Part shown: piece after piece, positions 1 through 29,187 of the stretch
Layout: each line of letters begins with the position of its first letter
Numbering within the stretch: position 1 is the stretch's first letter
Assembly (NCBI GenBank): GCA_003221615.1
Contig: QHSQ01000020.1
Span: forward strand, 1-42,256
Length of the DNA: 42,256 nt
Direction of reading: 5' to 3'
Origin: Candidatus Rokuibacteriota bacterium
GTDB lineage: Bacteria; Methylomirabilota; Methylomirabilia; Rokubacteriales; CSP1-6
Made by a program: the position numbers and the translations under genes
Notes under the pieces: generated by a model
What the model was told of the DNA's origin: nothing
Database searches by the model: none
The model's input: only the letters and a program-made list of their open reading frames with translations

Positions 1-369
1 GGACCAGAAGGCGGAGTCGTGGGCGAGTCCCACTCTCACCGTCATGTCGAGCTCATCCGCCAGTGTCAGGATCGTCTCGAGCGGTGGCTCGGCCACCGGG
101 GAGAGTCGGGTGCTCGGATAAAATGCCATGTCGTCGTACGCGGTCCACTGGACGACGATCTCCCCGGTTCGAAGCTGCGCGAGATATCCGAAGAGCCGCC
201 GCCACGAGTCCTCGCTCCACGAGCCGTGGGCCTGCGAGAGCTGGATGAAAGTTCCGTGGAGCCTGGGCGGCGGCGCCTGCGCCAGTGACGCCGCGCCACC
301 GGAAAGTGTCACCGCGGCGAGACCGATCCAGAGCCAAGGCCACCGGGCCGGCATCGTCACGCGCGCCAT
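1..369 (-). CDS. DUF4434 domain protein, secreted (partial, C-terminus outside window)
   Basis: The frame is open from an ATG at 369 to the window edge, giving 123 residues. An N-terminal signal peptide is visible (charged start, hydrophobic WLWIGLAAVTLSGGAA core, likely cut near residue 31 after SLAQA). The mature part begins GTFIQLSQAHGSW and continues with a W-x3-SW-x-RLF helix and an EIVVQWTAYDD strand. This is the pattern of the N-terminal part of DUF4434, a TIM-barrel family of unknown function related to glycoside hydrolases. The start lies 3 bases after the stop of the NfrA-like gene, so translation is probably coupled and the protein probably serves the same polysaccharide pathway, perhaps as a periplasmic glycan-trimming enzyme (inference). 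Family assignment is fairly sure; function is not. Confidence 0.75.
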   Translation of the reverse strand, partial: MARVTMPARWPWLWIGLAAVTLSGGAASLAQAPPPRLHGTFIQLSQAHGSWSEDSWRRLFGYLAQLRTGEIVVQWTAYDDMAFYPSTRLSPVAEPPLETILTLADELDMTVRVGLAHDSAFWS

Positions 370-372
370 CCC

Positions 373-2265
373 TCAGAAGCGCAGCACGCCGGTGAGCACG
401 AGTCCATGGAAGCTTCCGTCGGAGGCGCCGCGTTGGCGATTGAAGAAGTCGCCGGCCTTGTACTGGATCAACAGCTCGACGCTGCCTCGATAGCCCTCGT
501 ACCGCGACTCGCCGAACAGATACCGGAGCGAAACGCCGCCGCCGCCCTCCACGAAGGAGTCCGTGGGGCCGCGGGCATCCTGATACCTCGCGTCGACGAC
601 GACATGGGGCGTGAGCAGGACCTGGTTGGCGATCCGGAAAGTGACTCCTTGCCTGGCTTCGCCGTACAGGACCCACAGGGAGCGCTCGACGAAGTAACCG
701 ACGTCGGCGAAGACCGTCGTGTAGTTCCAGTGCGACCAGTCGGGTTTGCCGAGCAGCGGATGGTGCTCCCACGAATACAGCGCGCGGAGGAGCCAGTCGT
801 CACTCGCGTCCCTCCCGATCGCGAAGAGTCGTTCGGCGCTCACGAAGAGGTTCTGGGTTCTCAGCGGCTTGTACCGAAGGCCGACACCCGCCTGGAGCGA
901 ATGGTCATCGACGTCGAGCGATTCGGGTCGGAAATTCCAGAGCAAGCGCGCGAAGACCTGGAAGATCCGCTCGTCACGGAAGCCGATCACCGGGGGCTGA
1001 TACGCGACCTCCACGCCGCTCTGCGACGGGAGCGTCCCGCCTACGGCTCCTCCCGACCCGGTGCTGGGCTGGCGCTGCGACGAGCGGTAGGTCAGGTAGG
1101 CCGTCGCCTCGAACCGCTTGGCGAGGCGCGCCACCTCTTGCTGCAGCCGCGCCCGTTCCTCCGCGATGTCGCTCTCGGGTCGGGGATCGCGTGGTGCGTT
1201 GTCGATGGCCTTCTTGAACCACTCGACCGCCCGGGAGGTATCCGATAGCGCCGCATAGATGTAGCCCAGCTCCTGATAGAGCGGCAGGCGATCGGGATCC
1301 CGGGCGACCACTCCTTCGAACACGCGGGCCGCGTCGGCCAGGCGCCCGGCATCCTTGTACGCGTAGCCCAGAGCGACCGCGTAGCCGAGATCGTCCGGCG
1401 CGAGGGCGTGCGCCCGCTCGAGATGGTCGACGGCCTCCGGGCGGCGCTTGAGGTCTCCAAAGGCGAGACCGAGAGCATGGTGCCGTTGCGCCGACGGCTC
1501 CAGGGCGTTGGCCTCCTCGAGGGCGGCGATGCTGTCCGTCAGCCTCCCCTCGGCCCGGTCGAGCGCCGCGAGCTCGTCGAGCCGGACGGCGCGACTGGCC
1601 CGCGACAACCGGTCGGGCTCGATCGCCGTCAACGTTTGCCGGGCCCGACGCGCGTCGCCCAGGAGGCGCTGTGCTCGACCCAGCCGGAGCGCGATCTCCG
1701 GGTCGTCGCCGAGGGCAAGGGCTCGCTCCCACGCCTCGGCCGCCGCGGCGTGCTGTCCCTCGGCGGAGTAGAGGTAGCCCAGAGAGCCGAGGACGTCCTT
1801 CTGCTCGGCGGGCGCGAGTTCCTGAAGTCGAAGCAGGGCGAGCTGAAGCCAATGGATGGCGACCCCCGGCTTCTTCAAGCGCTCGTAGCAGCGCGCCAGG
1901 TAGACGAAGGAACGGGGCGCAGGGGACTGCCGAGCCGACAGCTCCAGCTCGCCGACCGCCTCCTCGCAGCGATCCAGCGACAGGAGCGCGAAGCCGAGGT
2001 TCTGGCGGATCTGCCAGTGATCGCGCCCGGCCGCGATCGCCGCGCGAAAGTATCGCGCGGCCTGTTCGTAGTCCCTGCGTTGCAGCGAGGCGACGCCCAG
2101 GCGCTCCAGGATCTCGGCGCGCTCCGTCGCGGGCGGAGGAGGCCGCTGAGCCTGGACGACGGCGGGTGAGACGCACACGAGTTGCACGGCGAGGCCGAGG
2201 GCCCAGACGAAGAAGCCTAGCCGAGGCCGGATTGGTCCAGGCGCTCGGCCCAGGGGAGGGGTCAC
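373..2265 (-). CDS. NfrA-like outer-membrane protein (TPR + C-terminal barrel)
   Basis: 630 residues from a GTG at 2265. The frame stays open further upstream, but this GTG overlaps the previous stop (GTGA, 4 bases) and sits directly before a signal peptide (hydrophobic FFVWALGLAVQLVCVSPAVVQA), so it is the likely start. Residues of about 45-380 are tandem TPR helices. From about residue 385 to the end the chain alternates aromatic and polar residues (RYKPLRTQNLF, VSAERLFAIGRD, YGEARQGVTF, LTPHVVV) and ends in a terminal Phe, typical of an outer-membrane barrel. This matches the C-terminal domain of the phage N4 adsorption protein NfrA. The role would be export or surface display of the glycan made by the NfrB-like enzyme. 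PgaA was considered, but no pgaB, pgaC or pgaD gene is present. Confidence 0.8.
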   Translation of the reverse strand: MTPPLGRAPGPIRPRLGFFVWALGLAVQLVCVSPAVVQAQRPPPPATERAEILERLGVASLQRRDYEQAARYFRAAIAAGRDHWQIRQNLGFALLSLDRCEEAVGELELSARQSPAPRSFVYLARCYERLKKPGVAIHWLQLALLRLQELAPAEQKDVLGSLGYLYSAEGQHAAAAEAWERALALGDDPEIALRLGRAQRLLGDARRARQTLTAIEPDRLSRASRAVRLDELAALDRAEGRLTDSIAALEEANALEPSAQRHHALGLAFGDLKRRPEAVDHLERAHALAPDDLGYAVALGYAYKDAGRLADAARVFEGVVARDPDRLPLYQELGYIYAALSDTSRAVEWFKKAIDNAPRDPRPESDIAEERARLQQEVARLAKRFEATAYLTYRSSQRQPSTGSGGAVGGTLPSQSGVEVAYQPPVIGFRDERIFQVFARLLWNFRPESLDVDDHSLQAGVGLRYKPLRTQNLFVSAERLFAIGRDASDDWLLRALYSWEHHPLLGKPDWSHWNYTTVFADVGYFVERSLWVLYGEARQGVTFRIANQVLLTPHVVVDARYQDARGPTDSFVEGGGGVSLRYLFGESRYEGYRGSVELLIQYKAGDFFNRQRGASDGSFHGLVLTGVLRF

Positions 2266-3791
2266 GGCGTCGCCTGATGCTCCGTGAGGGCCAACGCCCG
2301 CTCGAGATACTTGACGGCGTCGTCCAGCGCGTCGAGCTTCATGCACGTTTCGCCGAGCGCCATGTAGACGGCGACATCCTTCGGGTTGAGTCCGATCGAC
2401 TGCTCGAACGCCTCGCGCGCCTCACGATACCGCCCCTGGGCATGATAGATGAAGCCCTGCCGTTTGTACGCCTCACTTCTGATCTGCGCCGTCCCGCCGC
2501 CGGCCGCCGCGGCGATCAGATGGCGCAACGCCGGGTCCCAGCGCCGGAGCGTACCATGGAGGGTGGCGATCCTCAGATGCGTTTGCCCGCTCGCATCGCG
2601 GTCGGCGACGGGCTCGAGCGCGGCTGCCGCCTCGGCCAACCGGCCGGCGCGCTCGAGCGCCTCGGCCCACATGGTCAAGGTTGGCAGGTCCGCGCGAAGC
2701 TTCGCCGCCGCGCTGAGCGTCTCGACCGCCGCGGGGAGCTGGCCCAGCTTGAGGTACCCCTGTCCAAGCGCGATCAAGACCCGATGGCGATCCTCGGGCG
2801 CGCTCGCCGTCGCGACGAGCTCGCTGAACTCGCGGGCGGCTTCGCGGTAGTCGCCGAACGCATAGAGAGCATTGGCGAGTCGCTCGCGGTCCTGGGCGCT
2901 GCCGCTGGCCTCCGCGGTCGCTCGAAACCATCGGGTTGACTCCCCGACGTCCCTTCGCGAAAACGTCACCTCCGCGAGACGACGGAGGACGGCTGCATTG
3001 CGCGCATCGGTCTCTAGCATCGCCAGCAGCTCCTGACGGGCCTGGCCCCAGTGCTGCTGCTTCTCGGCCAGCTCCGCTCGCGCCTCGCGCACGCGAAGCC
3101 GTTCGGCGGCGTCCCGCGCCTCGGTCAGCGCCGTCGCGAACACGACCTCCGCTTCCTTCAGTCGGCCGAGCTTCTGGAGCACGCGACCACGCCTGAGACG
3201 GTGATCGGCGCTCGGCCGCAGGGCCACGAGGCGATCGGCAGCGGCGAGGGCCTCCTCGGCTGCTCCGTGCGCGGTTGCCAGATCGACGATCATCGCCAGG
3301 GCGAGCGTCTGGTGCTCGACCCTGGCGCCTTGCACCTCGGCGACTGCGCGAAAATCCCGGATGGCCTCGGCGTCGTCGGACCGAGCGTGGTTGGCCAGGG
3401 CCCGGTAGAGCAATGCAGGGGCGAACCCGGGGCGCTCCCGAAGAAGCGCATCGGCTTCCCGAATCAGCTCGGCGTGGGCGTTGAGGCGATGGAGCAGGAC
3501 GAGATAGCGGAAGCGGACCTCGAGGTCACGAGGATCGATCGACAGGTATGTTGCGAACTCCCGCTTCGCCTGCTCCAGCTCGCCTGCGGCGATCATCCGG
3601 TAGGCACGGTCCAGGTGCGGGTAGGTTCGGAAACGCCGGATCTCTCGCTGAAGCCATCCCTCGTCACGCACTACCTCGAGCGCCGCGCCGTAGCCGGAAG
3701 CCTCGGGGGCCTTCGGCGGCGGCGGAGTGCAGCCGGCCATCGCAATGGTCAGCGAGAGGACGCAGCCGATCGCGGCCGCCCGTGACATCAT
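2262..3791 (-). CDS. TPR lipoprotein, likely the detached N-terminal half of NfrA
   Basis: 509 residues. The N-terminus is a lipoprotein signal with lipobox AMAGC (Cys21), followed by a Pro-rich linker. The rest is helical TPR repeats, e.g. the clear one near residues 455-495 with GFIYHAQGRYREAREAFEQS. The segment RTYPHLDRAYRMIAAGELE at about residues 55-73 resembles the start of the TPR region of E. coli NfrA. Its start ATG overlaps the stop of the glycosyltransferase gene by one base, and a second ATG follows at once, so start choice matters little. Its own stop overlaps the start of the TPR-barrel gene by 4 bases. Together the two proteins have about the layout of one NfrA, so I infer a gene split in which this half is a lipid-anchored periplasmic scaffold. 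TPR and lipoprotein calls are sure; the NfrA relation is likely. Confidence 0.75.
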   Translation of the reverse strand: MMSRAAAIGCVLSLTIAMAGCTPPPPKAPEASGYGAALEVVRDEGWLQREIRRFRTYPHLDRAYRMIAAGELEQAKREFATYLSIDPRDLEVRFRYLVLLHRLNAHAELIREADALLRERPGFAPALLYRALANHARSDDAEAIRDFRAVAEVQGARVEHQTLALAMIVDLATAHGAAEEALAAADRLVALRPSADHRLRRGRVLQKLGRLKEAEVVFATALTEARDAAERLRVREARAELAEKQQHWGQARQELLAMLETDARNAAVLRRLAEVTFSRRDVGESTRWFRATAEASGSAQDRERLANALYAFGDYREAAREFSELVATASAPEDRHRVLIALGQGYLKLGQLPAAVETLSAAAKLRADLPTLTMWAEALERAGRLAEAAAALEPVADRDASGQTHLRIATLHGTLRRWDPALRHLIAAAAGGGTAQIRSEAYKRQGFIYHAQGRYREAREAFEQSIGLNPKDVAVYMALGETCMKLDALDDAVKYLERALALTEHQATP

Positions 3792-5236
3792 CAGGCTGCC
3801 CTAGGTGCCGAGCGCCGACGCAACTCTGCTTCGGACGGGAAGACGTGGCCCGTCTTGTCCCAGGCAATCGGCCGTCCCGTGATCAGGTGTCGCGCGAAGA
3901 GCCGGATGGCCCGGGCGGTGGCCGCGAAGTTGACGACATTGCTCCAGACCTGCCTCGGCACCGCGAGAATGGCTTGACGCCACCCATAGAGCTGCCAGAC
4001 GCACAGCGAGCGCTGCACCAGGCGCTCCAGCATCAGGAATCCGTTGGCCCACATGAGGTACCAGAGCCACGACCCGGATTCGACCACCGGCGGATACCGG
4101 TACGCGTCGGGGACCAGGGACGTCGTGACCCACACGGCGATCACGAACCCGACCGCGACATAACCGACCATCACGATCTGATTCGTGAGGAGCCCCTTGC
4201 GATCTCGGAACAGCGCATACTTCGTCCAGAGGTCGCCCCGCCAGCCCAACCCCGCCCAGCCCTGCAGCGTGATCCCGATGATCCATCTCGATTTCTGTCG
4301 GACGGCCTGCGAGAATCGAGACGGGAAGTATTCCCAGGTCCCGATGCACTCCCGCATCGAAGCCTGGTCGAGCGGCCCCCGGCGCTCGATCGCGAGACTC
4401 ACGAAGGTTTGGCTGAGCCCGTAGCGCTGCAGCCGCATGCCGATCTCGTAGTCCTCCGTGAGGGAGTCGAGGCTGAAGACCTGGTTCTCCGAGTCGGCCG
4501 CGAGGAGACGCAAGGCCCGCCGGCTGAAGGCGCAACCCACGCCGGCGGCCGGGATGCTGCCGGTCAGCCATTGCCGGACGGGCAGCTCCCTGACGTGACT
4601 GTGCGCGAACTCGTCGAGATAGTGTCCGGCCGTGAACCAATGCCACCTCGTGGGCAGGCACAGGACCGGTAACTGCACCATGTCGTACCGTGGCATCAGG
4701 GTGTTGAACAGATTGAACGACAGCGAGTGAGGCAGGTCCTCCGCATCGTGGATGACGAACATCGAGAACGTGAGGGAAGTCTCTCGCTCGAAGTCCAGGA
4801 TCGCCTGGTAGATCCAGTTCAGGCAGTCCGACTTGCAGGTCGGCCCGTTGTTCGGGCAGACGACCCGGTGAACATTGGCGAACGACTCCGTCACGACGTC
4901 GACCTCCCGGTGGGTGGCCGGATCGTTAGGGTACGTGCCGACGAAGACGTGGTAGTTCGAGTACGAGACGGACTTCAAGATGTTGCCGACCATCCGACGG
5001 ATCACGGCCGACTCGTCCCAGGCCGGCACCATCACGGCGATCGGCTGCTCGGTGATGCCGAGCAGCTCCTGCTCGGTGGCGACGTGAGGAGCCGGGACCC
5101 GCCGGTAGGCCATCGCGACGAAGCAGAGGTCGACGAAGCAGTCATCGATCCCGCTCAGCAAGCACGCGACGCCCACGACGGCCAACAGGCCCTTGCAGAC
5201 GACGAGAAGGACGGGGAGAACCTCGGCGGCGCTCAT
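3791..5236 (-). CDS. nfrB: NfrB-like membrane glycosyltransferase (GT2), no MshEN domain
   Basis: 481 residues from an ATG at 5236, chosen because it overlaps the wecB stop as ATGA and follows a GGCGG site; the frame opens further upstream but would overlap wecB by 73 bases. Processive GT2 hallmarks are visible: VMVPAWDES near residue 70, HDAED at 163-167, TED at 260-262 and QKSRW at 314-318. HVFVGTYPNDP, GPTCKSDCLNW and GHYLDEFA are close to E. coli NfrB, the synthase of the N4 glycan receptor, thought to use UDP-ManNAc. There is a membrane segment at the N-terminus and two or more after residue 345. E. coli NfrB continues with an MshEN c-di-GMP-binding domain after the GRPIAWDKTGH region; here the protein stops about 20 residues later, so that control is absent. 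The polymer is inferred to be ManNAc-based. Confidence 0.88.
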   Translation of the reverse strand: MSAAEVLPVLLVVCKGLLAVVGVACLLSGIDDCFVDLCFVAMAYRRVPAPHVATEQELLGITEQPIAVMVPAWDESAVIRRMVGNILKSVSYSNYHVFVGTYPNDPATHREVDVVTESFANVHRVVCPNNGPTCKSDCLNWIYQAILDFERETSLTFSMFVIHDAEDLPHSLSFNLFNTLMPRYDMVQLPVLCLPTRWHWFTAGHYLDEFAHSHVRELPVRQWLTGSIPAAGVGCAFSRRALRLLAADSENQVFSLDSLTEDYEIGMRLQRYGLSQTFVSLAIERRGPLDQASMRECIGTWEYFPSRFSQAVRQKSRWIIGITLQGWAGLGWRGDLWTKYALFRDRKGLLTNQIVMVGYVAVGFVIAVWVTTSLVPDAYRYPPVVESGSWLWYLMWANGFLMLERLVQRSLCVWQLYGWRQAILAVPRQVWSNVVNFAATARAIRLFARHLITGRPIAWDKTGHVFPSEAELRRRSAPRAA

Positions 5237-6429
5237 CGTACCGCCAGCGAAACTGGCCTGAACTCCCGCGCCCGGTGCAGCAATGGCCGCCGCCCATTGA
5301 ACCATCGAGTCAGCGCTTCGACGATCCGCTCCGCGGCGCGCCCATCCCCATACGGATTGATACCCGTCGACATCTCGTGGTAGGCGATCGGGTCGGTCAG
5401 CAGCCGGCCCACCTGGGTCACGATGCTCTCGCGATCGGTGCCGACCAGCTTCGCGAGCCCCGCTCGAAACGCCTCGGGGCGTTCCGTCACCCTGCGGAGC
5501 ACCAGCAGCGGTTTGCCGAGGGTGGGCCCTTCTTCCTGGATGCCGCCGGAGTCGGTCAGGATGACGTAGGCCCGCCGCATCAGGTCCACGAACCCGATGT
5601 AGTCCAGCGGCGAGATGAGGTGGATGCGCTCGACGCCCGCCAGCATCCGATTCACGGGCTCGCGCACGTTCGGATTGAGATGGACCGGGAACACGACCAC
5701 GAGGTCGGGAAACCGGGCCACCAGATCACGGAGCGCGCGACAAATGCTCTCGAGGTCATGCCCCCACGACTCGCGCCGGTGCGAGGTGACGACGAGCACC
5801 CGGCCGCCGTTGAACGGCCATTCGATGGAGCGCGTCGTCCGAGCCCCGCCCTCTAGTAGCCCACGAAGCGTGTCCACGATCGTGTTGCCGGTGACGACGA
5901 TCTTCCGCCGGGGTACCCCTTCTTTCATCAGGCGCCGCCGTGCCAGCGGCGTCGGCGCCAGATGGATGTCCGCGACGACCGCCGTCAGTCGCCGATTCGC
6001 CTCTTCCGGAAACGGGTTCTCCAGATCGCGGCTACGCAGCCCGGCCTCGACGTGGGCGATCGGGATCCGGGCGTAAAAGGCCGCCAGCGCAGCGGTGAAG
6101 GCCGTTGTCGTGTCGCCCTGCACGACGACCAGGTCCGGCCGATCTGCGGCGAGGCGACGGGCCACCTTCTCGAGCACGCCGCCGGTCAGCTCGGCAAGCG
6201 TTTGATTGGGGCGCATCAGATCCAGATCGACGTCGGGCGAGATCTGGAACAGGGACAGCACCTGGTCGAGCATCTCCCGGTGTTGCGCGGTCGCGATCAC
6301 GGACGTCTCGAAGAGCTCGGGCTCTCGTCGCAGGGCGAGAATGAGTGGCACGAGCTTGAGGGCTTCCGGCCGCGTGCCCAACACGATCGCGATCCGCCGG
6401 CGCCGGGGTGCGGTGTCGCCTCCGTCCAT
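5233..6429 (-). CDS. wecB: UDP-N-acetylglucosamine 2-epimerase (non-hydrolysing)
   Basis: 398 residues, full length for WecB. It interconverts UDP-GlcNAc and UDP-ManNAc in the cytoplasm. Family motifs are all in place: LGTRPEA (17-23), QGDTTTAF with Asp106, HVEAGLRS with Glu128, PEEANRRL with Glu142/143, GNTIVDT, TSHRRES with His217, VFPVHLNPNVR, LTDSGGIQEE (291-300) and NPYGDG near 358. No active-site residue looks changed. The start ATG has an AAGGAC site 6 bases before it and lies 21 bases after the LuxR-type gene; its end overlaps the NfrB-like gene by 4 bases. In E. coli WecB is also called NfrC because phage N4 needs it. Its place inside this operon says it supplies UDP-ManNAc to the NfrB-like enzyme. 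Confidence 0.95.
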   Translation of the reverse strand: MDGGDTAPRRRRIAIVLGTRPEALKLVPLILALRREPELFETSVIATAQHREMLDQVLSLFQISPDVDLDLMRPNQTLAELTGGVLEKVARRLAADRPDLVVVQGDTTTAFTAALAAFYARIPIAHVEAGLRSRDLENPFPEEANRRLTAVVADIHLAPTPLARRRLMKEGVPRRKIVVTGNTIVDTLRGLLEGGARTTRSIEWPFNGGRVLVVTSHRRESWGHDLESICRALRDLVARFPDLVVVFPVHLNPNVREPVNRMLAGVERIHLISPLDYIGFVDLMRRAYVILTDSGGIQEEGPTLGKPLLVLRRVTERPEAFRAGLAKLVGTDRESIVTQVGRLLTDPIAYHEMSTGINPYGDGRAAERIVEALTRWFNGRRPLLHRAREFRPVSLAVR

Positions 6430-6450
6430 GGCTTGTCCTTGGATCCTGGC

Positions 6451-7065
6451 CTATAGAGCCGGGTCGCGGACGAGCGATGCGCGGAGTGCGAGCGCCGCCG
6501 CGGCCGTCCGCGTCTCGACGCCGAGCTTTCGGTACACGCGGTTCAGGTGGATCTGGACGGTCCGCGCGGATCGGCCCAGGATGATCCCGATCTCCGGGTT
6601 CGTCTTTCCCTCGGTGACCCACCACAGGACCTCGTGCTCGCGCGGTGTCAGCCCATGCCGGCGCAGCGGTTGGTGCAAGGGCTGGCGCTGCTCCTGCACG
6701 AGCAGGACGATTTCGCCGGGATCGGAGGTCGGCAACGGACGCATCAGCAAGCGCCGGCCGTCCTGCTCGGCGACGAACGGCATGCCGCGCCCCGATTGCG
6801 CCAACCAGGCCACGAGAGACGGCGGGAGCCAGTCGCCGGTGATGGGCGCGACGTACGCGGCCACGAGCGCTCGAGCGTGCTCGGACACGAATTTGACGAA
6901 GCCGTGGCGACTGACGACGAGCACGGCGTCGGAACGGGAGGCATCGCCTGCCGTGGCCGGGGAATCCGCGGACCACGCGTCATCGGTGGGAACCTCGAGG
7001 AGCGCGGGCTCGGGTGCGACGCGTCCTCCACCGTCGTTCTTCCGCTGAGTACTAATGACTGGCAT
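6451..7065 (-). CDS. LuxR-family transcription regulator with PAS-like sensor
   Basis: 204 residues from an ATG at 7065, chosen for a good GAAAGG site in front and because the frame upstream (to 7410) has the Arg/Ser/Pro-rich look of non-coding DNA. Residues 137-195 are a LuxR-type helix-turn-helix: LTPREHEVLWWVTEGKTNPEIG followed by LGRSARTVQIHLNRVYRKLGV. Residues of about 46-125 (AVLVVSRHGFVKFVSEHAR, then EIVLLVQEQRQ) look like a compact PAS fold that could bind a small ligand. No receiver domain is present. It is the first gene of the polysaccharide operon, 21 bases before wecB, and probably controls it. The signal it senses cannot be read from the sequence. Confidence 0.88.
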   Translation of the reverse strand: MPVISTQRKNDGGGRVAPEPALLEVPTDDAWSADSPATAGDASRSDAVLVVSRHGFVKFVSEHARALVAAYVAPITGDWLPPSLVAWLAQSGRGMPFVAEQDGRRLLMRPLPTSDPGEIVLLVQEQRQPLHQPLRRHGLTPREHEVLWWVTEGKTNPEIGIILGRSARTVQIHLNRVYRKLGVETRTAAAALALRASLVRDPAL

Positions 7066-7591
7066 GGCTTGCCTTTCTCGCCTTTGCTCGCGCGACCGGC
7101 CTGGCCTGCTGAGCTTGCCTGCCTTCCAAGAGTTGCGTGACCACCGCGAGGACTCGCTTGGCCCGCCTCGAGGTCTTGATCGCGGTGAATCGGCTGACTG
7201 TCGGGGCTGGGGCGGCGGGCTGGGCTCGACGACGACCACGGAGCGATGACCGGTGCATCTGTAGACCCGGCGCCCTCTTCCTGGCTGACTTGAAACGTCC
7301 TTCAAGACCGACGGGCTCTCATCCGGCCTCGATCCTCCTCTCCGAGCCGCATCCGGTGACGGCATCAGATCACGGAGAATCCGATCCACACCATCAGGCG
7401 AAGTCCTCAACTTAATACCGAAAGTTCACTTATATATGAGATGTCGGACTCCCGGCGAGCGATCTGGCTCACTAAAAGGTGTCCATGCGCTCGATGACCT
7501 CGGACGGTGGTCGAGCCGAGGACGCTCGCGAGAATCCGCCGTGTGAGACTTCAGCGTGACAGGCTAGTGTGAAGGGAGGCCGAGGCCCGAG
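7066..7591. other. 526-base intergenic region, no gene seen
   Basis: Between the LuxR-type gene and the small HTH gene, both on the minus strand. Open frames here have the biased residue content of non-coding high-GC DNA. The only notable feature is the AT-rich patch near 7408-7440, listed separately. It is the natural place for the promoter of the polysaccharide operon. Confidence 0.5.
7408..7440 (-). promoter_or_regulatory. AT-rich patch, candidate promoter/operator of the polysaccharide operon
   Basis: The patch holds CTTAATACCG and CACTTATATATGAG in otherwise GC-rich DNA, about 350 bases before the LuxR-type start. On the minus strand it gives TATATA and TATTAA hexamers, but I could not pair either with a convincing -35 box at 16-18 bases. 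An AT-rich operator is equally possible. Confidence 0.2.
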
Positions 7592-7807
7592 TCAGACGCC
7601 GAGCGTGAGGCTCTGAAGAGTCCGGACTGTCGCTGCGGAGAGGAGCGCGATCCTTCGGGGCTTTCTTCCGGGGCCTCGGGCGAGGCGTCGCGGCAGCTTG
7701 TGCTTCGAGAGGAGATTCCGGATAGTGCCGTCGGAACGGTGGCAGAGCAGCGCCGCCTCTCGCACGGTATACCAGCGTTCGACATCCCCCGACGTCGAGT
7801 CCGCCAT
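7592..7807 (-). CDS. Small helix-turn-helix (excisionase/MerR-like) protein
   Basis: 71 residues from the ATG at 7807; the open frame goes back to 7936, but that part is not domain-like. Residues 11-40 (RWYTVREAALLCHRSDGTIRN) fit the HTH_17 fold: a tyrosine-led first helix, an AA turn and a recognition helix. A basic stretch (LPRRLARGPGRKPRR) and a final ALLSAATVRTLQSL helix follow. Such proteins bind DNA as small regulators or recombination directionality factors. No integrase or att-like repeat is seen nearby, so a regulatory role is more likely. The ribosome site is weak. It sits between a secreted glycosidase and the polysaccharide operon on the same strand. Confidence 0.6.
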   Translation of the reverse strand: MADSTSGDVERWYTVREAALLCHRSDGTIRNLLSKHKLPRRLARGPGRKPRRIALLSAATVRTLQSLTLGV

Positions 7808-8000
7808 GCCGGAGTCTAGGGCAACACCCGTGCCACAGCTCACCGTCAACTCACGCGGGGTGTTAGAACTACCGGCGTACAAGCCGCTTGCAAGGTAGCT
7901 CAAAGAATTTGCAGAGGGATGCATGCGGAGGGTCACCTCGAGCCGGCCGTGACGGGCCCCCTGGTCGAGCGGGTGTGGGTTCGGGCCGGCGCGGTGAAGC

Positions 8001-9542
8001 CTAGTTGTCGCGGATCACGTCGTTGAAGATCGTCCAGAGTGGATTGCTCAGCGGCACGAAATCCTGCTTGCCGTACCACCAGAAATGGCCACCGATGTAC
8101 TGCGGCAGCGCGAGGCGCACGGAATAGTAGCGCTGAATGTACGACGCTTTCCGTGAGGCGTACACGGTGCCGTTCTCGCCGAAGCCGATCTTCGAGTTGG
8201 GAAACATCGAGGCGAGTTTCTGGAAGACGCGCAGCCAATCCGGCTGAAGTCCGTTGCAGTCGTCCTCGTAGTAGCTGATCAGGACGTAGTCGAGGCCCTG
8301 CTTCATGTCGTCGGGGACATGGGCCTGGGTCCAGGTGAACATCTCGTTGGCGGGGTTCGACCAGCAGTCCTCGTTGTAGTACAACGTCAGGGCCGCGCGC
8401 GCACCTCGCTGCTTGACTCGATCATAGGCGCCCTGCATCTTGGCCACGACGCTCGGGGTGTCGCCCAGCCACTCACCATTGATCTCGTTGCCGACTTCCC
8501 AGATATCGACGACGGGTCCGAGGGCGTCGAGGTAGTCCGAGGTGCGCTGCAGGTAGTCGGCCACCGTATAGCGCTTGACGTACGCGGAATCGAGGATCTC
8601 GCCCATCACATAACTGACCCTGGAGATCTGGCTGACCGGGTCGACATAGTCGCTTGGCGGGACGAACTCGTCGAAAACGACGCGCGTGGTAGCCGTGTGC
8701 GAGAGGTTGCTGAGAGACGCGACGATGGCCGGTAAGTGATCGACGGCGTCCAGTGTGATCCCGTAGAGGGGATCGGGAATGGGCCGCGACGGGAGACCGG
8801 TCGACCCGGGCGCGGTCACGTTGAAGGCGGTACTCGTCGCCGAGGCGAGGTTCGGCGACAGCGCCCTCAGGGTGTAGCCGAGGCCGGTGGCGTTGACTCG
8901 GAGGTCGCTGAAGGTTGCCACGCCATCGATCGCGGCGCGGGTGGTCAAGCCCGATAGAGTTCCGCTGCTGGGATTCGATGCGATGGAGATGACGATGCTG
9001 GCGGCTCCTGAAGAAACAGTGTTGCCGTAGCGGTCGGAAAGCGCGACCTGGACCGGGGGGGCGATGAGAGCGCCGAGCAGCACGTTACGGGGCTGGCTCC
9101 TGAACATCACTTGGGTGGCGGCGGCGGGGGTAATCACCTCGGTCTGAGAGGCTGAGGCGAGCCCGGCGGCTGAGGCGGTAATCGTCGGCATGCCGACCAC
9201 GGTGCTTTTGAAATAGAACGCTTTGGTGGCCGAGGCCGCGGCGATCTTGACGGCATAGATCCGCGTCGAACAGGTCGAATTCGAGTAGAACTTCAGGTTG
9301 CTGCTGCCGGCGAGGCTGACGACCGTAACGGACGACACCGGAGCCGGCGAGGAGGCACTGTCCTGAGCCTGGACCCGGGTGGTCCCGGAGCAGGCCCCGG
9401 CCGTCACCGTCTGGGGCGACGTGATGATTCGCAGTGCGACCGGCGTCATCGCGAAGGCCGAGCTTGCCATGACGGCTCCCGCTGTCGCGAGGATGAAAAC
9501 GGATGCCGCGATCCGCATGCGCACGGCCGAATGAGTCAGCAT
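8001..9542 (-). CDS. Secreted glycosidase-like protein (Ig-like domains + TIM barrel)
   Basis: 513 residues from the ATG at 9542. In-frame alternatives are a TTG at 9560 and an ATG at 9518; none has a clear ribosome site, but all keep the signal peptide (hydrophobic RIAASVFILATAGAVMASS). Numbering from the TTG, residues of about 40-250 are two Thr/Ser/Ala-rich beta-sandwich (Ig-like) modules, with Cys57 and Cys97 possibly paired. From about 265 on comes a clan-A glycosidase-type barrel: EVGNEIN holds the likely acid/base Glu359 and GFGENG the likely nucleophile Glu462, with aromatic GGHFWWYGK near the end. The substrate is unknown. Same strand and proximity to the polysaccharide operon suggest a role in trimming or remodelling exported glycan, but 936 bases separate it from the LuxR-type gene. 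Confidence 0.75.
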   Translation of the reverse strand: MLTHSAVRMRIAASVFILATAGAVMASSAFAMTPVALRIITSPQTVTAGACSGTTRVQAQDSASSPAPVSSVTVVSLAGSSNLKFYSNSTCSTRIYAVKIAAASATKAFYFKSTVVGMPTITASAAGLASASQTEVITPAAATQVMFRSQPRNVLLGALIAPPVQVALSDRYGNTVSSGAASIVISIASNPSSGTLSGLTTRAAIDGVATFSDLRVNATGLGYTLRALSPNLASATSTAFNVTAPGSTGLPSRPIPDPLYGITLDAVDHLPAIVASLSNLSHTATTRVVFDEFVPPSDYVDPVSQISRVSYVMGEILDSAYVKRYTVADYLQRTSDYLDALGPVVDIWEVGNEINGEWLGDTPSVVAKMQGAYDRVKQRGARAALTLYYNEDCWSNPANEMFTWTQAHVPDDMKQGLDYVLISYYEDDCNGLQPDWLRVFQKLASMFPNSKIGFGENGTVYASRKASYIQRYYSVRLALPQYIGGHFWWYGKQDFVPLSNPLWTIFNDVIRDN

Positions 9543-9697
9543 AGCAACCGCGGCGCGCAAGATGTGTACCGAGCGGCGCCTCGAGCGAACGCATCAATTC
9601 TTCAGCGCGGCGCGCCGTCTTGGCCGGCACTGTCAGAGCCGCGCTGTCTCGGGCGTGACAGCCCGACACGTTGGAAAGGCCGGTCGACAAGCAGACG

Positions 9698-10138
9698 CTA
9701 GAGAGGACGACCGCCGAGCATCTTGCGGAGGAAGATCCGGATGTCGGCGCCGGGCCAGCCTGGAAGCTCGCCGATCACGTCGTAGCCGTTGCGCCGGTAG
9801 AACGCCGGTGCCTGATAGCTGTGGGTGTCCAGATGCATCTGGTGGCAGCCGCGGCGCACCGCCTCCGCTTCGGCCGCGGCCAGCAGCCGCGCGCCCAGAC
9901 CGCGGCGGCGAAGCTTCTCGTGGACCCAGATCGCCTGCACGAACCCGGTCCCGCCCCACGTCCACCCGTGCAGGCCGGCCACAATGGTGCCCTCAGCGTC
10001 GCTCGCGAAGATCGCGAGCGAGCGCCCGTCGTCGACGCCGCTCGCGGCGGCGTTGAACTCGTAGAGCCGCTCGTCGAGGAGCGCGAGGTCCTCCCGGCGC
10101 GGATCGTTCTCGATCCGGATGTCTTCGGGCGGCGCCAT
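9698..10138 (-). CDS. GNAT-family N-acetyltransferase
   Basis: 146 residues. The acetyl-CoA-binding signature RRRGLGARLLAAAEAEA (about residues 80-96) is clear, preceded by the GFVQAIWVHEKL strand and followed by MHLDTHSYQAPAFYRRNGY, a typical GNAT end. The start ATG at 10138 is 8 bases after the stop of the aldehyde ferredoxin oxidoreductase gene; the ribosome site is weak, so it may depend on coupling. The frame stays open far upstream, but that part overlaps the previous gene. The acceptor substrate cannot be told. Nothing ties it in function to the oxidoreductase except position. Confidence 0.88.
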   Translation of the reverse strand: MAPPEDIRIENDPRREDLALLDERLYEFNAAASGVDDGRSLAIFASDAEGTIVAGLHGWTWGGTGFVQAIWVHEKLRRRGLGARLLAAAEAEAVRRGCHQMHLDTHSYQAPAFYRRNGYDVIGELPGWPGADIRIFLRKMLGGRPL

Positions 10139-10146
10139 CGACGCCG

Positions 10147-11964
10147 TTAGCCGGCGTGGACGGCGTCGGCCTCGAGGTCGAGCACGCGGATGGTCTCCCG
10201 CGTCGGCACGCCCGTCGCCGGGTCCCAGCCCTGCTCGACGTAGTAGTCGGTGACGATCTTGTCCTGCTGCTCGCGGGTGAGGCCCGCGTGCTTGGGCAGC
10301 GGGTCGCTGAAGCGAGCCGGCAGCCGGTCGTCGGCCCGGCTCATGCCCTCGCGCAGGTTGAAGAGCCGGGCGAGCGTCAGGCCGCGATGCGCCGCGGTCA
10401 CCATCTCCTCGGGCGTGATGTCCCAGCCGGTGACCGTCTTGATGATCTGCAGCGACTGATCGTCCTCGTAGGCGAGGAAGTGGCAGAGCCCGATCTGGTT
10501 GCGCAGGCCGTTGCGGTTGCTGGTCTGGCGCATGTGATCGCCGCCGGTCGGCGCGAGCAGGTACGAGGCGCGCATGGCCGGCATGTGACGCGGGTCGTGC
10601 ATCGCCATCTCCATGCCCTTCACGGTCGTCAGGAATGCCTCGGAGCCGCGGCCGAGCCGTCGCGCCGCCCGCTGGGAGCCTTCGGCGAGCAGATCGCCGA
10701 TGCCCTGGCGGTACGCGATCATCTCGACCACCTTGATGACGCCATCGGCGTCGTGGAAGCGAAGCGGGACGCCGCCCGTGTCCTCGAGCGTGAGGATGCC
10801 CTTCTCGAAGCACTCCATCGCCCATGCGAGAGTCGCGCCGAGCGACACCGTGTCCATCGCGAGGTAGTTGCACATCTCGTTGGACTTGCAGATGGCGATG
10901 AGGTCGTCCAGGCCGAGGTTGACGCCGAGCGAGGCGAGCGATTCGTACTCCGGCCCGCCGTAGCGCGGGTCGACGCGGTAGCGGCCGAGCGGATCGACGG
11001 CCACCTTCGCCCGTCCCTTGTAGATGGTTTCCATGGCCTCGCGCGCCGTTTCTTCCTTCTGCTCGATGTGGACGACCTTCTTGCACCGCACCGAGCACGC
11101 GTAGCAGGCGCCCATCTTGACGCGTACCTCGTCGCGCACCGCGATCGCGTCGACCTTCGCAATGGTGTCGGCGGCGCCGAGACGATAGTTGAGGACGGGC
11201 ATCCCGCCCTCGAGGCTCTTACCCTGCATCGCCGCTCCGGTCCCGAACTCGTGAAACGCCCGGTGCTTCTCGTCCATCGTGCCGGAGACCCACTTGGCCA
11301 TCGCCAGGAGGCCCGGCTGATCGGCGATCTTCACCGGAACCTTGCCGCGGACCGCGATGGCCTTGAGCCGCTTCGAGCCCATCACGGCGCCCATGCCCGT
11401 TCGGCCCGCGACCTCGTTCAGCTCGTTGGCGATGCAGGCGAAGCGCACGAGGTTTTCACCCGCCGGCCCGATCTGAGCGACGCGGATGCGCGGGTCACCC
11501 AGCTCGGCGAGGATCGCGTCCTCGACCTCGCCGGTGATCTTGCCCCAGAGGTGCGTGGCGTCGCGGAACTCGACGGCTCCGTCGTTGATCCAGAGATAGA
11601 CCGGGGTGGGGGAGACCCCGTGAAAGACGATCGCGTCCCAGCCGGCGCGCTTGAGCTCGGCGCCCCAGTAGCCTCCGGACTCCGACTCGCCGAAGCCCCC
11701 GGTGAGCGGCGACTTGGCGCCGACGCTGTGACGCCCTGCGCCGGGGACCGGCGCGCCTGTGAGGATCCCGGGTGCGATGACGAGGATGTTGTCGGGCCCC
11801 AGCGGGTCCGCGCCCTTCGGCACGTGCTTCAAGAGGTAATGAGCGATGAGCCCGCGCCCGCCGGCGTAACGCCGGAAGAAGGGGTCGCCCGGCTCCTCGA
11901 TCCGCGTCGTGCGGTCGGAGAGGTTGACGTGCAGGATCTTGTTCCAGTAGCCGTAGCGTTCCAT
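10147..11964 (-). CDS. Aldehyde ferredoxin oxidoreductase family protein
   Basis: 605 residues, normal length. These enzymes hold a tungsten- or molybdenum-bispterin cofactor and one [4Fe-4S] cluster and oxidise aldehydes with ferredoxin or a similar carrier. The cluster ligands are visible: C-x2-C-x3-C at Cys287, Cys290 and Cys294, plus Cys494 in GLCHFL, almost the same positions as in the Pyrococcus enzyme. The N-terminus (WNKILHVNLSD, then YAGGRGLIAHYLL) and GPAGENLVRFACIANE are family hallmarks. The start ATG at 11964 follows a very strong AAGGGGGAG site and shares one base with the stop of the MoaD-like gene (TGATG). The MoaD-like neighbour fits pterin dithiolene synthesis. Tungsten versus molybdenum and the aldehyde substrate are open. 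Confidence 0.92.
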   Translation of the reverse strand: MERYGYWNKILHVNLSDRTTRIEEPGDPFFRRYAGGRGLIAHYLLKHVPKGADPLGPDNILVIAPGILTGAPVPGAGRHSVGAKSPLTGGFGESESGGYWGAELKRAGWDAIVFHGVSPTPVYLWINDGAVEFRDATHLWGKITGEVEDAILAELGDPRIRVAQIGPAGENLVRFACIANELNEVAGRTGMGAVMGSKRLKAIAVRGKVPVKIADQPGLLAMAKWVSGTMDEKHRAFHEFGTGAAMQGKSLEGGMPVLNYRLGAADTIAKVDAIAVRDEVRVKMGACYACSVRCKKVVHIEQKEETAREAMETIYKGRAKVAVDPLGRYRVDPRYGGPEYESLASLGVNLGLDDLIAICKSNEMCNYLAMDTVSLGATLAWAMECFEKGILTLEDTGGVPLRFHDADGVIKVVEMIAYRQGIGDLLAEGSQRAARRLGRGSEAFLTTVKGMEMAMHDPRHMPAMRASYLLAPTGGDHMRQTSNRNGLRNQIGLCHFLAYEDDQSLQIIKTVTGWDITPEEMVTAAHRGLTLARLFNLREGMSRADDRLPARFSDPLPKHAGLTREQQDKIVTDYYVEQGWDPATGVPTRETIRVLDLEADAVHAG

Positions 11965-12341
11965 CAGGCTCCCCCTTCTCTTGTCGTGGTCGCCTCGCCG
12001 TCGGCCGCGGCTCCCCCATCTCTTATCGTGGTCGCCTCGCCTACGGCTGCGCCGTCGGCTGCGGCTCCCCCTTCCATCGGGCTCAAGAGCATGACCTCGG
12101 CGCCCTCGCGCAGGGGGGCGTCCCGGTCGGCCTGCTCGCCGTCCAGCGCGATGGTCAACTCGGCGTCCGGCGCGACACCGATCACTGCCAGCAGATCGTC
12201 GACCGTGGCGTCCTTCGGCACCGTATAGCGCTGCGGCCCGTCGGCGCCGCGAGGCAGAAAGCGCCGGAGATCGGCGAAGAAGGTGACCATCACGGTGATG
12301 GTGGAAGGCTCCGTCCGCGTCGAGTCCCGAGGCCCGGTCAT
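11964..12341 (-). CDS. MoaD/ThiS-like sulfur-carrier protein with repeat-built tail
   Basis: 125 residues if started at the ATG at 12341; an ATG at 12290 (MVTFFADLRRF) is the other choice. Neither has a strong ribosome site. The beta-grasp fold is visible: VTFFADLRRFLPRG, DATVDDLLAVIG, LREGAEVMLLSP. In MoaD the chain ends in Gly-Gly, which is adenylated and thiocarboxylated. Here the expected end (MEGG) is followed by about 33 more residues made of two imperfect repeats, each returning to a Gly-Gly-Ala, and the protein ends EGGA. Function as a sulfur carrier would need tail removal or use of another end. Its stop shares one base with the start of the oxidoreductase gene, which fits supply of pterin cofactor sulfur to it. 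Confidence 0.8.
   Translation of the reverse strand: MTGPRDSTRTEPSTITVMVTFFADLRRFLPRGADGPQRYTVPKDATVDDLLAVIGVAPDAELTIALDGEQADRDAPLREGAEVMLLSPMEGGAAADGAAVGEATTIRDGGAAADGEATTTREGGA
11970..12065. repeat. In-frame tandem repeat in the MoaD-like gene (42- and 54-base units)
   Basis: Unit 11970-12011 and unit 12012-12065 both begin TCCCCC(T/A)TCTCTT on the plus strand and share TCGTGGTCGCCTCGCC and CGGC(C/T)GCGGC. The longer unit has 12 extra bases that are themselves a partial copy of CGGCTGCG. A third start of the unit (TCCCCCTTC) follows at 12066. Both lengths are multiples of three, so the reading frame is kept, and every unit copies the purine-rich ribosome site used by the next gene. Confidence 0.85.
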
Positions 12342-12353
12342 GACAATCTTGCT

Positions 12354-12365
12354 GGAGTATACTGC
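12354..12365 (+). promoter_or_regulatory. GGAGTATACTGC motif, candidate -10 region
   Basis: Lies in the 68-base divergent gap between the MoaD-like and flavin oxidoreductase genes. The core AGTATACT (12356-12363) is a perfect palindrome, so TATACT reads on both strands. It is 45 bases from the ATG at 12410. No good -35 box is seen at 16-18 bases. Close copies occur at 19306-19317, 35681-35692 and 36662-36673. Confidence 0.3.
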
Positions 12366-12409
12366 GCGGCGTCAACTATGACGGATCGAAGTGCGAGAGG
12401 AGATCTGAG

Positions 12410-17734: not shown

Positions 17735-19282
17735 TCAGCTCTTCTTCAGGCGCACGTCTTCGAGCGGCGCCGACCACGGATAGGGATTGATCATCATGAG
17801 CGCCGGGTTCTCCACGCGCGGTCCGATCCCGCTGGGCCAGATGTACTCGAAGATCGGCGCGATCCGCGTGCGCTCGTTCATGAGCTGCTGGATCTGGTGC
17901 AGCATCGCCTCGCGCTTCTTGCGGTCGGTCTCGCGCGCCTGCTGCTTGTAGAGCGCGTCGACGTCGGGATAGCCGCCGTAGGCGTAGGCGCCTTCGCTCG
18001 GAAAGATCTCGGACATCCGCGAGGCGGCGTTGCCGTAGAGCGCGCTCGAGCAGACGCAGAGCCCCTTCGCCTTCCTGGACTGCAGCGCCGCGAAGTACGC
18101 AGCGCGCTCCATCGGCCGCATCTTCAGCTTGATGCCCACCGCCTGGAGGTTGCCGATGATCGCCTCGCCGAGCGAGAAGTACGGCGGAAGCTGGTAGAGC
18201 TCGCCGGCGTCGAAGCCGTTGGGATAGCCGGCTTCGGCCAGGAGCTGCTTGGCTCGCCCCGGATTGTGGGGCAGCGGCTCGATCGGCAGCGCGAAGTCGA
18301 ACGCGCGCGGGATGAAGTTGCCCGCGGGCCTGGAGGCGCCGAGCGTCTCCGCGTCGGAGAGCGCCTGACGATCGAGCGCGTAGCTGGCCGCCAGGCGAAC
18401 GCGCTTGTCGGCCCACGGCGACTTCGGATCCCACTGGTCGAGGAAGTCGAGGAAGAACACCGCGATCCCGCCGGAGAACGCCAGCTTGACGTTGGGATCG
18501 CGTTTCAGCTCCTGCGCCTGCGGCACCTCGAGGAGATACGCGATGTCCACCTCGCCGCGCTTGAGCATCGCCACGCGGGTCGTGGACTCCGGCACCACCT
18601 TGTAGACCAGCCGCTTCACGGACGGCACCTTGCGCCAGTAGCTCTCGTTGGCCTCCATGACCAGCTCGATGCCCGGCGTGTGGCTCACGAACTTGTACGG
18701 CCCGAGCCCGACCGGATTCTTCTTGAACCCATCGTCGCCGACCTTCTCGACGTAGCTCTTGGGCACGATCCAGCCGGCGCCGGTCGCCATCGTCCCGTAG
18801 AAGGCCATGAAGTCGGGGAAGGGCTCGTGGAGCTGGAAGCGCACGCGGGACGGGCTCACGACGACGACGTCCTTCACCCGGTCGTGGAGGACCTTCGAGC
18901 CCTTGGCGCGAAGGAAGCTGAACTTCACGTCCTCGGCCGTGAACGGATCGCCGTTGTGGAACTTCAGGCCTTCGCGCAGCTTGAACTCGTACACGCGCTG
19001 ATCCGGGCTGACGGTCCAGGATTCTGCCAGGCTCGGCGTCATCTGGTTGCCCGGCATCGGTTTCACGAGGGCATCGTGCAGCGCGTACAGCACCCAGAAC
19101 GGCGTGATCTGGCCGACGACCTCGCCGGGATCGAACCACACCGGGGAGAGCGTCACGTAGAGCGCCCAACGCATTTCGCCTTCGGGCTTGGTCTGAGCAG
19201 CGGGCCGGTCGAAGAGACCGCCCGCGAGGCATACGAACACGAGAGCGAGGCAGCCGATCGCGAGACGTCGTGTGTCGTGCAT
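17735..19282 (-). CDS. ABC transporter substrate-binding protein, family 5 (peptide/opine type)
   Basis: 515 residues with a signal peptide (RRLAIGCLALVFVCLAGGLF, cut near residue 30). The SBP_bac_5 body is clear: PSLAESWTVSPDQRVYEFKLREG, GDPFTAEDVKFSF, a GLGPYKFV signature near residue 190 and AGYPNGFDAG later. Such proteins bind peptides, sugars or other solutes in the periplasm for an ABC importer. No permease or ATPase gene is adjacent, so the importer must be encoded elsewhere or the protein is an orphan. It is the first gene of an operon with the truncated hydrolase and the Ldh2 dehydrogenase, and is divergent from the molybdenum hydroxylase gene. Confidence 0.93.
   Translation of the reverse strand: MHDTRRLAIGCLALVFVCLAGGLFDRPAAQTKPEGEMRWALYVTLSPVWFDPGEVVGQITPFWVLYALHDALVKPMPGNQMTPSLAESWTVSPDQRVYEFKLREGLKFHNGDPFTAEDVKFSFLRAKGSKVLHDRVKDVVVVSPSRVRFQLHEPFPDFMAFYGTMATGAGWIVPKSYVEKVGDDGFKKNPVGLGPYKFVSHTPGIELVMEANESYWRKVPSVKRLVYKVVPESTTRVAMLKRGEVDIAYLLEVPQAQELKRDPNVKLAFSGGIAVFFLDFLDQWDPKSPWADKRVRLAASYALDRQALSDAETLGASRPAGNFIPRAFDFALPIEPLPHNPGRAKQLLAEAGYPNGFDAGELYQLPPYFSLGEAIIGNLQAVGIKLKMRPMERAAYFAALQSRKAKGLCVCSSALYGNAASRMSEIFPSEGAYAYGGYPDVDALYKQQARETDRKKREAMLHQIQQLMNERTRIAPIFEYIWPSGIGPRVENPALMMINPYPWSAPLEDVRLKKS

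Positions 19283-25608: not shown

Positions 25609-29187
<3,579 letters not shown>

What the first reader, a model, noticed from the sequence alone, without database searches (positions are those of the whole stretch)
1..7065. Self-contained NfrAB/WecB-type glycan export operon with a LuxR regulator and DUF4434 protein
The gene set is LuxR, wecB, NfrB-like synthase, TPR lipoprotein, NfrA-like barrel and DUF4434, with overlaps of 4, 1 and 4 bases and a 3-base gap from wecB onward. It rebuilds in one operon the parts that E. coli keeps in separate places for the phage N4 receptor glycan (NfrA, NfrB, NfrC=WecB). Seen directly: motifs, gene order and overlaps. Known: the E. coli roles. Inferred: this operon makes and displays a ManNAc-type polysaccharide at the cell surface that could act in adhesion or as a phage receptor. 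I know of no description of such a complete, compact version outside Enterobacteria-like genomes.
Basis: partly seen in the sequence, partly recalled or inferred. Interest (0 to 1): 0.75.

Follow-up and report, generated by a model that had tools for sequence, protein, structure and literature searches.

The report
Acquired polysaccharide gene island, Nfr-type
A bacterium carries, as one inserted block of genes, a kit for making and exporting a surface sugar polymer of the kind phage N4 uses to recognise E. coli; the kit is a known type, but here it lacks the usual c-di-GMP switch, its export pore is split into two proteins, and it comes with extra sugar-processing enzymes.

Summary
Gene set, overlaps and family assignments are confirmed; the synthase groups with NfrB, not PgaC or BcsA. 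The novelty claim is not supported: E. coli already has nfrB-nfrA-ybcH (ybcH = DUF4434) in one operon, wecB beside nfrB in other species is published (PMC8669469), and 26 of 33 other NfrA+NfrB loci in my survey had wecB nearby. (2) NfrB lacks the c-di-GMP-binding MshEN end, as do 5 of 33 others. (3) The genes lie in a ~12.2 kb island, absent at the same site in five congeners, holding the only wecB found in the genome. (4) The island also carries a GH-A-like secreted protein and a DUF2334 protein, both recurrent nfr neighbours. (5) DUF4434/YbcH is modelled as a GH-A-type TIM barrel with two invariant glutamates at the catalytic positions, so it is probably a glycosidase rather than only a scaffold. 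LuxR was not found at the other 40 loci (weak test). Verdict: new variant of a known kind; product and function inferred.

The parts
1..369 (-). DUF4434 gene (YbcH family), first 122 residues only; cut by the contig end. Complete 341-aa copy on contig C85 (L005 156-1181)
   Evidence: PF14488 53.8 bits here, 166 bits on C85; C85/window overlap 96.3% over 515 bases
373..2265 (-). nfrA-C: C-terminal TPR plus outer-membrane barrel half of NfrA, own Sec-type signal (read by eye), GTG start at 2265
   Evidence: NfrA_C 104.6 bits; aligns to residues 619-1211 of the 1211-aa NfrA of L006, 46% identity
2262..3791 (-). nfrA-N: N-terminal TPR half of NfrA as a separate lipoprotein (lipobox MAGC, read by eye)
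   Evidence: 40% identity to residues 35-514 of L006 NfrA, 1e-98; no remnant of residues 515-618 found in any frame of window 301-3900
3791..5236 (-). nfrB-like GT2 synthase, 481 aa, no MshEN domain
   Evidence: NCBIfam PRK14716/PRK15489/NfrB; catalytic D, TED, QxxRW kept, c-di-GMP residues missing
5233..6429 (-). wecB (nfrC), UDP-GlcNAc 2-epimerase, the only one found in the genome
   Evidence: TIGR00236 467.6 bits; solved UDP-GlcNAc 2-epimerases at 2e-118; own-genome search
6451..7065 (-). LuxR-type HTH regulator, 204 aa
   Evidence: GerE 58 bits; not found at the other 40 loci with a single-sequence search
7066..7591 (.). intergenic leader upstream of the operon; no Rfam family, no sigma-70 consensus
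7592..7936 (-). small HTH_17 (excisionase-like DNA-binding) protein, inside the island
   Evidence: PF12728 28.4 bits, cut-off 27
8001..9560 (-). secreted GH-A-like protein (called GH519 here): Ig-like N-part by eye, C-part with WEVGNE and a second invariant Glu
   Evidence: homologues near nfr genes in 4 of 40 loci; E359 and E462 invariant in 5 of 5; GH53 profile only weak
9690..9722 (.). right edge of the island; backbone (GNAT, AFOR genes) begins
   Evidence: synteny with five congeners starts at 9711-9722

Best explanation
It is a horizontally acquired, self-sufficient Nfr-type exopolysaccharide system, of the same class as the E. coli system that makes the N4 glycan receptor. WecB makes UDP-ManNAc (family knowledge; its product here not shown). 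NfrB polymerises it and passes the chain through the inner membrane (inferred from E. coli and from conserved catalytic residues). The chain crosses the periplasm along a TPR scaffold that here is a separate lipoprotein (nfrA-N) and leaves through the nfrA-C barrel, a layout like AlgK plus AlgE (recalled). DUF4434, a GH-A-like glycosidase, and probably DUF2334 and GH519 trim or modify the polymer (inferred). The synthase lacks the c-di-GMP-binding end, so output is probably set by transcription, perhaps by the LuxR gene, rather than by c-di-GMP binding to NfrB (inferred).
Confidence: 0.78

Rival explanations
1. The operon makes a different polymer (for example a GlcNAc- or cellulose-like chain) and wecB serves another pathway.
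For: The linkage and sugar of the product cannot be read from sequence; WecB products feed other glycans in many bacteria (family knowledge).
Against: The synthase is NfrB-like, with no significant match to PgaC or BcsA; wecB overlaps nfrB by 4 bases, lies near nfr genes in 27 of 40 other genomes, and is the only WecB found in this genome.
Confidence: 0.12
2. The split NfrA is a sequencing or assembly frameshift in an ordinary fused NfrA, and the missing MshEN end is a truncation artefact.
For: The window is one MAG contig; the split was seen in 0 of 36 other uncut NfrA frames.
Against: Each half begins with its own export signal (by eye), about 105 residues of the fused protein have no remnant in any frame, and the genes overlap by a 4-base GTGA. 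The nfrB stop overlaps the next start, and 5 of 33 other NfrB also lack MshEN.
Confidence: 0.08
3. The region is foreign DNA wrongly binned or chimerically assembled rather than an island in this genome.
For: Contamination 8.55%; NfrA_C absent from the other 94 genomes of the class.
Against: The same contig, from about 9.7 kb to at least 27.4 kb (the stretch tested), is backbone shared with congeners, and a second contig, C85, independently shows the other island-backbone junction at the same site.
Confidence: 0.07
4. DUF4434 and DUF2334 are inactive binding scaffolds, as proposed for YbcH (PMC8669469), not enzymes.
For: In E. coli a ybcH deletion only partly suppressed the motility effect and N4 still infects (PMC8669469, passages). 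Fold alone shows no function.
Against: Two glutamates are invariant in 32 DUF4434 proteins, E. coli included, at the GH-A catalytic positions; a pure scaffold need not keep both.
Confidence: 0.25

Closest known systems
Escherichia coli NfrBA-YbcH-WecB (N4 glycan receptor, NGR) system
   Same: NfrB-type GT2, NfrA-type TPR barrel, WecB, DUF4434/YbcH; catalytic residues kept
   Different: wecB in the operon; no MshEN; NfrA split in two; DUF2334, GH519 and LuxR added; on an island
wecB-nfrB-DUF2334-nfrA-DUF4434 loci of Variovorax ISL-3 (L009), Azoarcus (L070) and Comamonadaceae OTU4NAUVB1 plasmid CP099603.1 (L175)
   Same: Same core genes; L009 also lacks MshEN, L070 keeps only a stub; L175 not tested for MshEN
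   Different: NfrA in one piece; DUF2334 between nfrB and nfrA instead of convergent; no LuxR found (L009, L070), no GH519 found (L009, L070)
UBA5754 wecB-nfrB-nfrA-DUF4434 locus (L006)
   Same: Best match of the window's NfrB (55%) and of both NfrA halves among those compared
   Different: Has MshEN and a fused NfrA; no DUF2334
PgaABCD (poly-GlcNAc) and alginate AlgK/AlgE (layout recalled)
   Same: Would work like them: synthase, TPR plus barrel export, deacetylase and hydrolase tailoring; split lipoprotein plus barrel as in AlgK/AlgE
   Different: Synthase has no significant BLAST match to PgaC; not members

Membership tests
Nfr (NGR) polysaccharide system | NfrB-type GT2 with DxD/TED/QxxRW and the residues equivalent to D169, D267, W330 | tested here: met
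Nfr (NGR) polysaccharide system | NfrA with TPRs and NfrA_C barrel | tested here: met
   NfrA_C 104.6 bits; but encoded as two genes; NfrA equivalog PRK09782 94 bits, cut-off 1223 not reached
Nfr (NGR) polysaccharide system | UDP-ManNAc supply by WecB (NfrC) | tested here: met
   TIGR00236 467.6 bits, only copy found in the genome
Nfr (NGR) polysaccharide system | YbcH/DUF4434 in the operon | tested here: met
   PF14488; cut in the window, whole on C85. YbcH equivalog PRK09936 94 bits, cut-off 344 not reached
c-di-GMP-activated NfrB (NF008411 equivalog) | C-terminal MshEN domain; score over 1170 bits | tested here: not met
   505 bits, aligned to 4-481 of 723 only; no MshEN match. Filed as Nfr-type, not as the c-di-GMP-activated equivalog
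Nfr (NGR) polysaccharide system | product is a ManNAc polymer and phage N4-type receptor | not testable with these tools
   needs biochemistry and phage assays
Cellulose (BcsA) or poly-GlcNAc (PgaC) synthases | synthase groups with BcsA/PgaC | tested here: not met
   BLASTP E 0.28 and 0.067 against 6e-129 for E. coli NfrB; separate branch, though a very long one
Clan GH-A glycoside hydrolases (DUF4434) | TIM barrel fold of GH-A type | tested here: met
Clan GH-A glycoside hydrolases (DUF4434) | Glu at the ends of strands 4 and 7 | tested here: met
   E177 and E282 of L006 (E144 and E245 of E. coli YbcH), invariant in 32; clan rule recalled
Clan GH-A glycoside hydrolases (DUF4434) | hydrolytic activity | not testable with these tools
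   -
NodB-type polysaccharide deacetylase (DUF2334) | homology to known deacetylases, metal triad | tested here: inconclusive
   HGxTHQ, D285 and H531 invariant in 10 (motif meaning recalled); hhalign to single PgaB and ArnD sequences found nothing; model pLDDT 46
Mobile genomic island | empty site in relatives | tested here: met
   five congeners; in L105 about 466 other bases lie at the site
Mobile genomic island | integrase or flanking repeats | tested here: inconclusive
   only an HTH_17 gene; no shared repeat at the two ends beyond chance; nothing clear within each end

The most novel reading that the evidence does not exclude
A c-di-GMP-independent, mobile branch of the N4-glycan system: MshEN lost repeatedly, polymer tailored by dedicated periplasmic enzymes (DUF4434 glycosidase, DUF2334 deacetylase-like, GH519), with a two-protein NfrA. 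In these bacteria the exported chain would be a trimmed, partly de-N-acetylated ManNAc polymer that deacetylase-tailspike phages of the N4 type could no longer use. YbcH of E. coli would be the glycosidase of the known system.
Probability: 0.3. Interest if true: 0.65.

Novelty: new variant of a known kind. Interest (0 to 1): 0.42.

Why it matters
The NGR polymer is a phage receptor in enterobacteria whose chemistry was only proposed in the papers seen. This locus gives two testable leads. YbcH/DUF4434 is probably a glycosidase, not just a scaffold, so its catalytic mutants could trap or lengthen the polymer. MshEN-less synthases may be active without c-di-GMP, which could yield enough polymer for structure work. 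The island and a plasmid copy also suggest (inferred) that the system travels as a block that brings its own sugar-nucleotide enzyme.

Tried and rejected
Considered and rejected: TPR lipoprotein as an extra component (it is the NfrA N-half). LuxR as part of the conserved set (0 of 40; a weak test with one query sequence: a LuxR-like gene 2.5 kb upstream of wecB in L016, 39 bits, was not picked up by it). A c-di-GMP riboswitch or other known RNA in the 7066-7591 leader (none). Sigma-70 consensus promoter (none in 5000-9800). A small separate MshEN gene between nfrB and DUF2334 in L009, L070 and L016 (none seen by eye in the six-frame translations). DUF2334 or GH519 as phage-like proteins (no phage record matched the Azoarcus DUF2334; no PHROGs match for the six proteins tried). 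Shared end repeats of the island (none beyond chance). My first home-made MshEN profile was contaminated with GT sequence and was replaced. PDB hits of the DUF4434 profile to TAL-effector repeats were taken as chance. DUF2334 structure model unusable, so no fold search was run with it.

Limits of the survey: the 15 genomes were chosen because they held an NfrB relative; those were drawn evenly from larger groups. G686, below the cut-off, was dropped (41 to 40). Several loci are cut by contig ends, so neighbour counts are lower bounds. The profiles were built partly from loci that were then counted, GH519's wholly from the window and the four loci found by BLAST. The 67 control loci (L017, L019-L069, L071-L085) are mostly Acidobacteriota and many are short; L015 and L018, NfrB-like loci with a WecB-like gene but no NfrA, and L011 were not in the control. 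Weak BLAST matches in controls stayed under the profile thresholds (L048 to DUF4434, L055 and L076 to NfrA). The MshEN profile was built from eight loci, four of which (L006, L008, L010, L012) were then counted. MshEN-less NfrB as such is not new: 1,841 minus 1,705 in PMC8669469 lack it.

That I found no report of a split NfrA, of DUF4434 as a glycosidase or of DUF2334 with nfr rests on listings (15 of 16 shown; 20 of 162 shown), 74, 75, 109, 110 in one open-access library; only PMC8669469 and PMC8669472 were opened, in part.
Full report
WHAT IS THERE. The window is the whole 42,256-base contig C66 of a 7.24 Mb, 596-contig genome (completeness 96.48, contamination 8.55). On the minus strand lie, in order of transcription, luxR 7065-6451, wecB 6429-5233, nfrB 5236-3791, a TPR lipoprotein gene 3791-2262, an nfrA-type gene 2265-373 and a DUF4434 gene from 369 that runs off the contig. 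Family matches: WecB 467.6 bits, NfrA_C 104.6, DUF4434 53.8 over the first 90 of 283 profile positions, PRK14716.1-3 447.6 (over its cut-off), PRK15489 514 and NfrB 505 (under theirs).

NOT NEW AS AN OPERON. E. coli K-12 carries nfrB-nfrA-ybcH together; DUF4434 rings in E. coli and ybcH aligns with the DUF4434 proteins, so DUF4434 is not an addition. PMC8669469 (section 11 read in full; other passages) reported that, in all organisms it found without a wecB homologue in another pathway, wecB lies directly beside nfrB, and that 1,705 of 1,841 NfrB homologues have MshEN. The window obeys that rule: its wecB is the only one found in its genome. PMC8669472 (passages) called the genes sporadically encoded in other Gram-negatives. 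I searched for NfrA_C in 15 chosen genomes (10 hits), 399 of an order (15), 395 of a phylum (9), 369 of a class (7), 297 of a phylum (5) and 46 of an order (1). These give 41 different genomes; one, below the cut-off, was dropped. In the stretches around the remaining 40: NfrB 33, WecB 27, DUF4434 33, DUF2334 10, GH519-like 4, LuxR 0. Of the 33 with NfrB, 26 have WecB. As a control, 67 loci with an NfrB-like synthase and no NfrA had none of WecB, NfrA_C, DUF4434, DUF2334 or GH519 over the same thresholds (its limits are told under Tried and rejected). A plasmid of a leaf Comamonadaceae holds wecB, a glycosyl transferase, a small orf, DUF2334, a TPR protein and DUF4434 in a row, so annotated in the public record (the TPR protein matches the window's NfrA).

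NFRA IS SPLIT. The 'TPR lipoprotein' aligns to residues 35-514 of the 1211-aa NfrA of L006 (40%, 1e-98), and the 'NfrA' gene to residues 619-1211 (46%, 3e-164). In translated search of window 301-3900 nothing matches residues 515-618 as a separate piece in any frame. The first half begins with a lipobox (MAGC), the second with a Sec-type signal (read by eye, no signal predictor was run). Among the other 40 genomes, 36 NfrA frames are not cut by a contig end and none has a separate N-half (one of the 36, L173, is only a 154-aa fragment). The split is thus so far seen in this genome only.

NO C-DI-GMP END ON NFRB. E. coli NfrB binds c-di-GMP through MshEN and needs it for N4 infection (PMC8669469, passages). 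The window's NfrB stops where MshEN would begin. Positions of D169, D267 and W330 are kept; L490, G491 and L537 have no counterpart. In the survey 5 of 33 other NfrB also lack it (G098, G104, G462, G113, G1102); a further few keep only a stub (for example L070). On a 43-row tree the six MshEN-less rows need five changes (gains or losses), four of them forced by supported branches, and are not clustered (94 of 500 shuffles as low); one of the six, L016, has a long branch and an unsure place. DUF2334 near the locus needs four changes and is clustered (0 of 500 shuffles as low), though near relatives help that result. The two traits overlap but are not tied: DUF2334 is in 3 of the 5 other MshEN-less loci and 6 of the other 28.

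THE SYNTHASE. It matches E. coli NfrB at 41% and 6e-129, PgaC at 0.067 and BcsA at 0.28. An 11-row tree sets PgaC and BcsA apart (100/100, on very long branches) but does not resolve NfrB from the NfrB-like L015 and L017; the 43-row tree does.

IT IS AN ISLAND. From window 9711-9722 onward the contig is syntenic with congeners at about 81-89% identity; to the left it is not. Contig C85 of the same bin begins with 515 bases that match window 515-1 at 96.3%, and holds the end of nfrA-C, the whole DUF4434 gene and a convergent DUF2334 gene. From its base 3022 it is again syntenic with the same five congeners. There the two flanks lie 1 to 17 bases apart in four (L103, L104, L106, L107), and about 466 bases apart in L105, where a small gene seems to lie between. 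The insertion is between the stops of a metallo-beta-lactamase-fold gene and a GNAT gene, leaving both whole. Its size is about 12.2 kb (arithmetic from these coordinates, assuming C66 and C85 belong together). NfrA_C occurs in 1 of 95 genomes of the class, this one only, so gain is the simplest reading. No integrase was seen and the two ends share no repeat beyond chance. GC of nfrB (0.648), GH519 (0.635) and DUF2334 (0.656) is below the backbone (0.695); the nfrA genes (0.688-0.693) are not clearly so.

VERDICT. Shown: gene content, split NfrA, missing MshEN, island with empty site, sole wecB found, invariant glutamates of DUF4434; predicted: its fold. Inferred: polymer identity, export path, tailoring, c-di-GMP independence, LuxR control. 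It is a well-formed new variant of a published system, not a first case of a complete Nfr operon outside enterobacteria.

Noticed in passing
L005 (contig C85) 1162-2841, minus strand: DUF2334 gene convergent with DUF4434, part of the same island but outside the window; recurrent next to nfr genes (10 of 40 loci).
   Followed up: yes
window 17738-19282: SBP_bac_5 solute-binding protein gene; this stretch matches many places in each of the nine genomes of the genus searched.
   Followed up: no
window 10150-12375: Aldehyde ferredoxin oxidoreductase near the island's insertion site, in a stretch conserved in congeners.
   Followed up: no
window 25609-29187: One 1192-aa frame with two ABC transporter ATPase stretches and membrane regions, apparently a fused double half-transporter.
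   Followed up: no
window 7592-7936: Small HTH_17 excisionase-like gene inside the island; no BLAST homologue among the fetched loci.
   Followed up: partly
L105 4499-4966: One congener has about 466 other bases, apparently a small acetyltransferase-like gene (by eye), at the same insertion site, so the site may be a variable spot.
   Followed up: no
L017, L019-L069, L071-L085: A large group of NfrB-like synthases, mostly Acidobacteriota (Bryobacterales), two tested members with MshEN, has no NfrA, WecB or DUF4434 over my thresholds in the stretch held: partners unknown.
   Followed up: no
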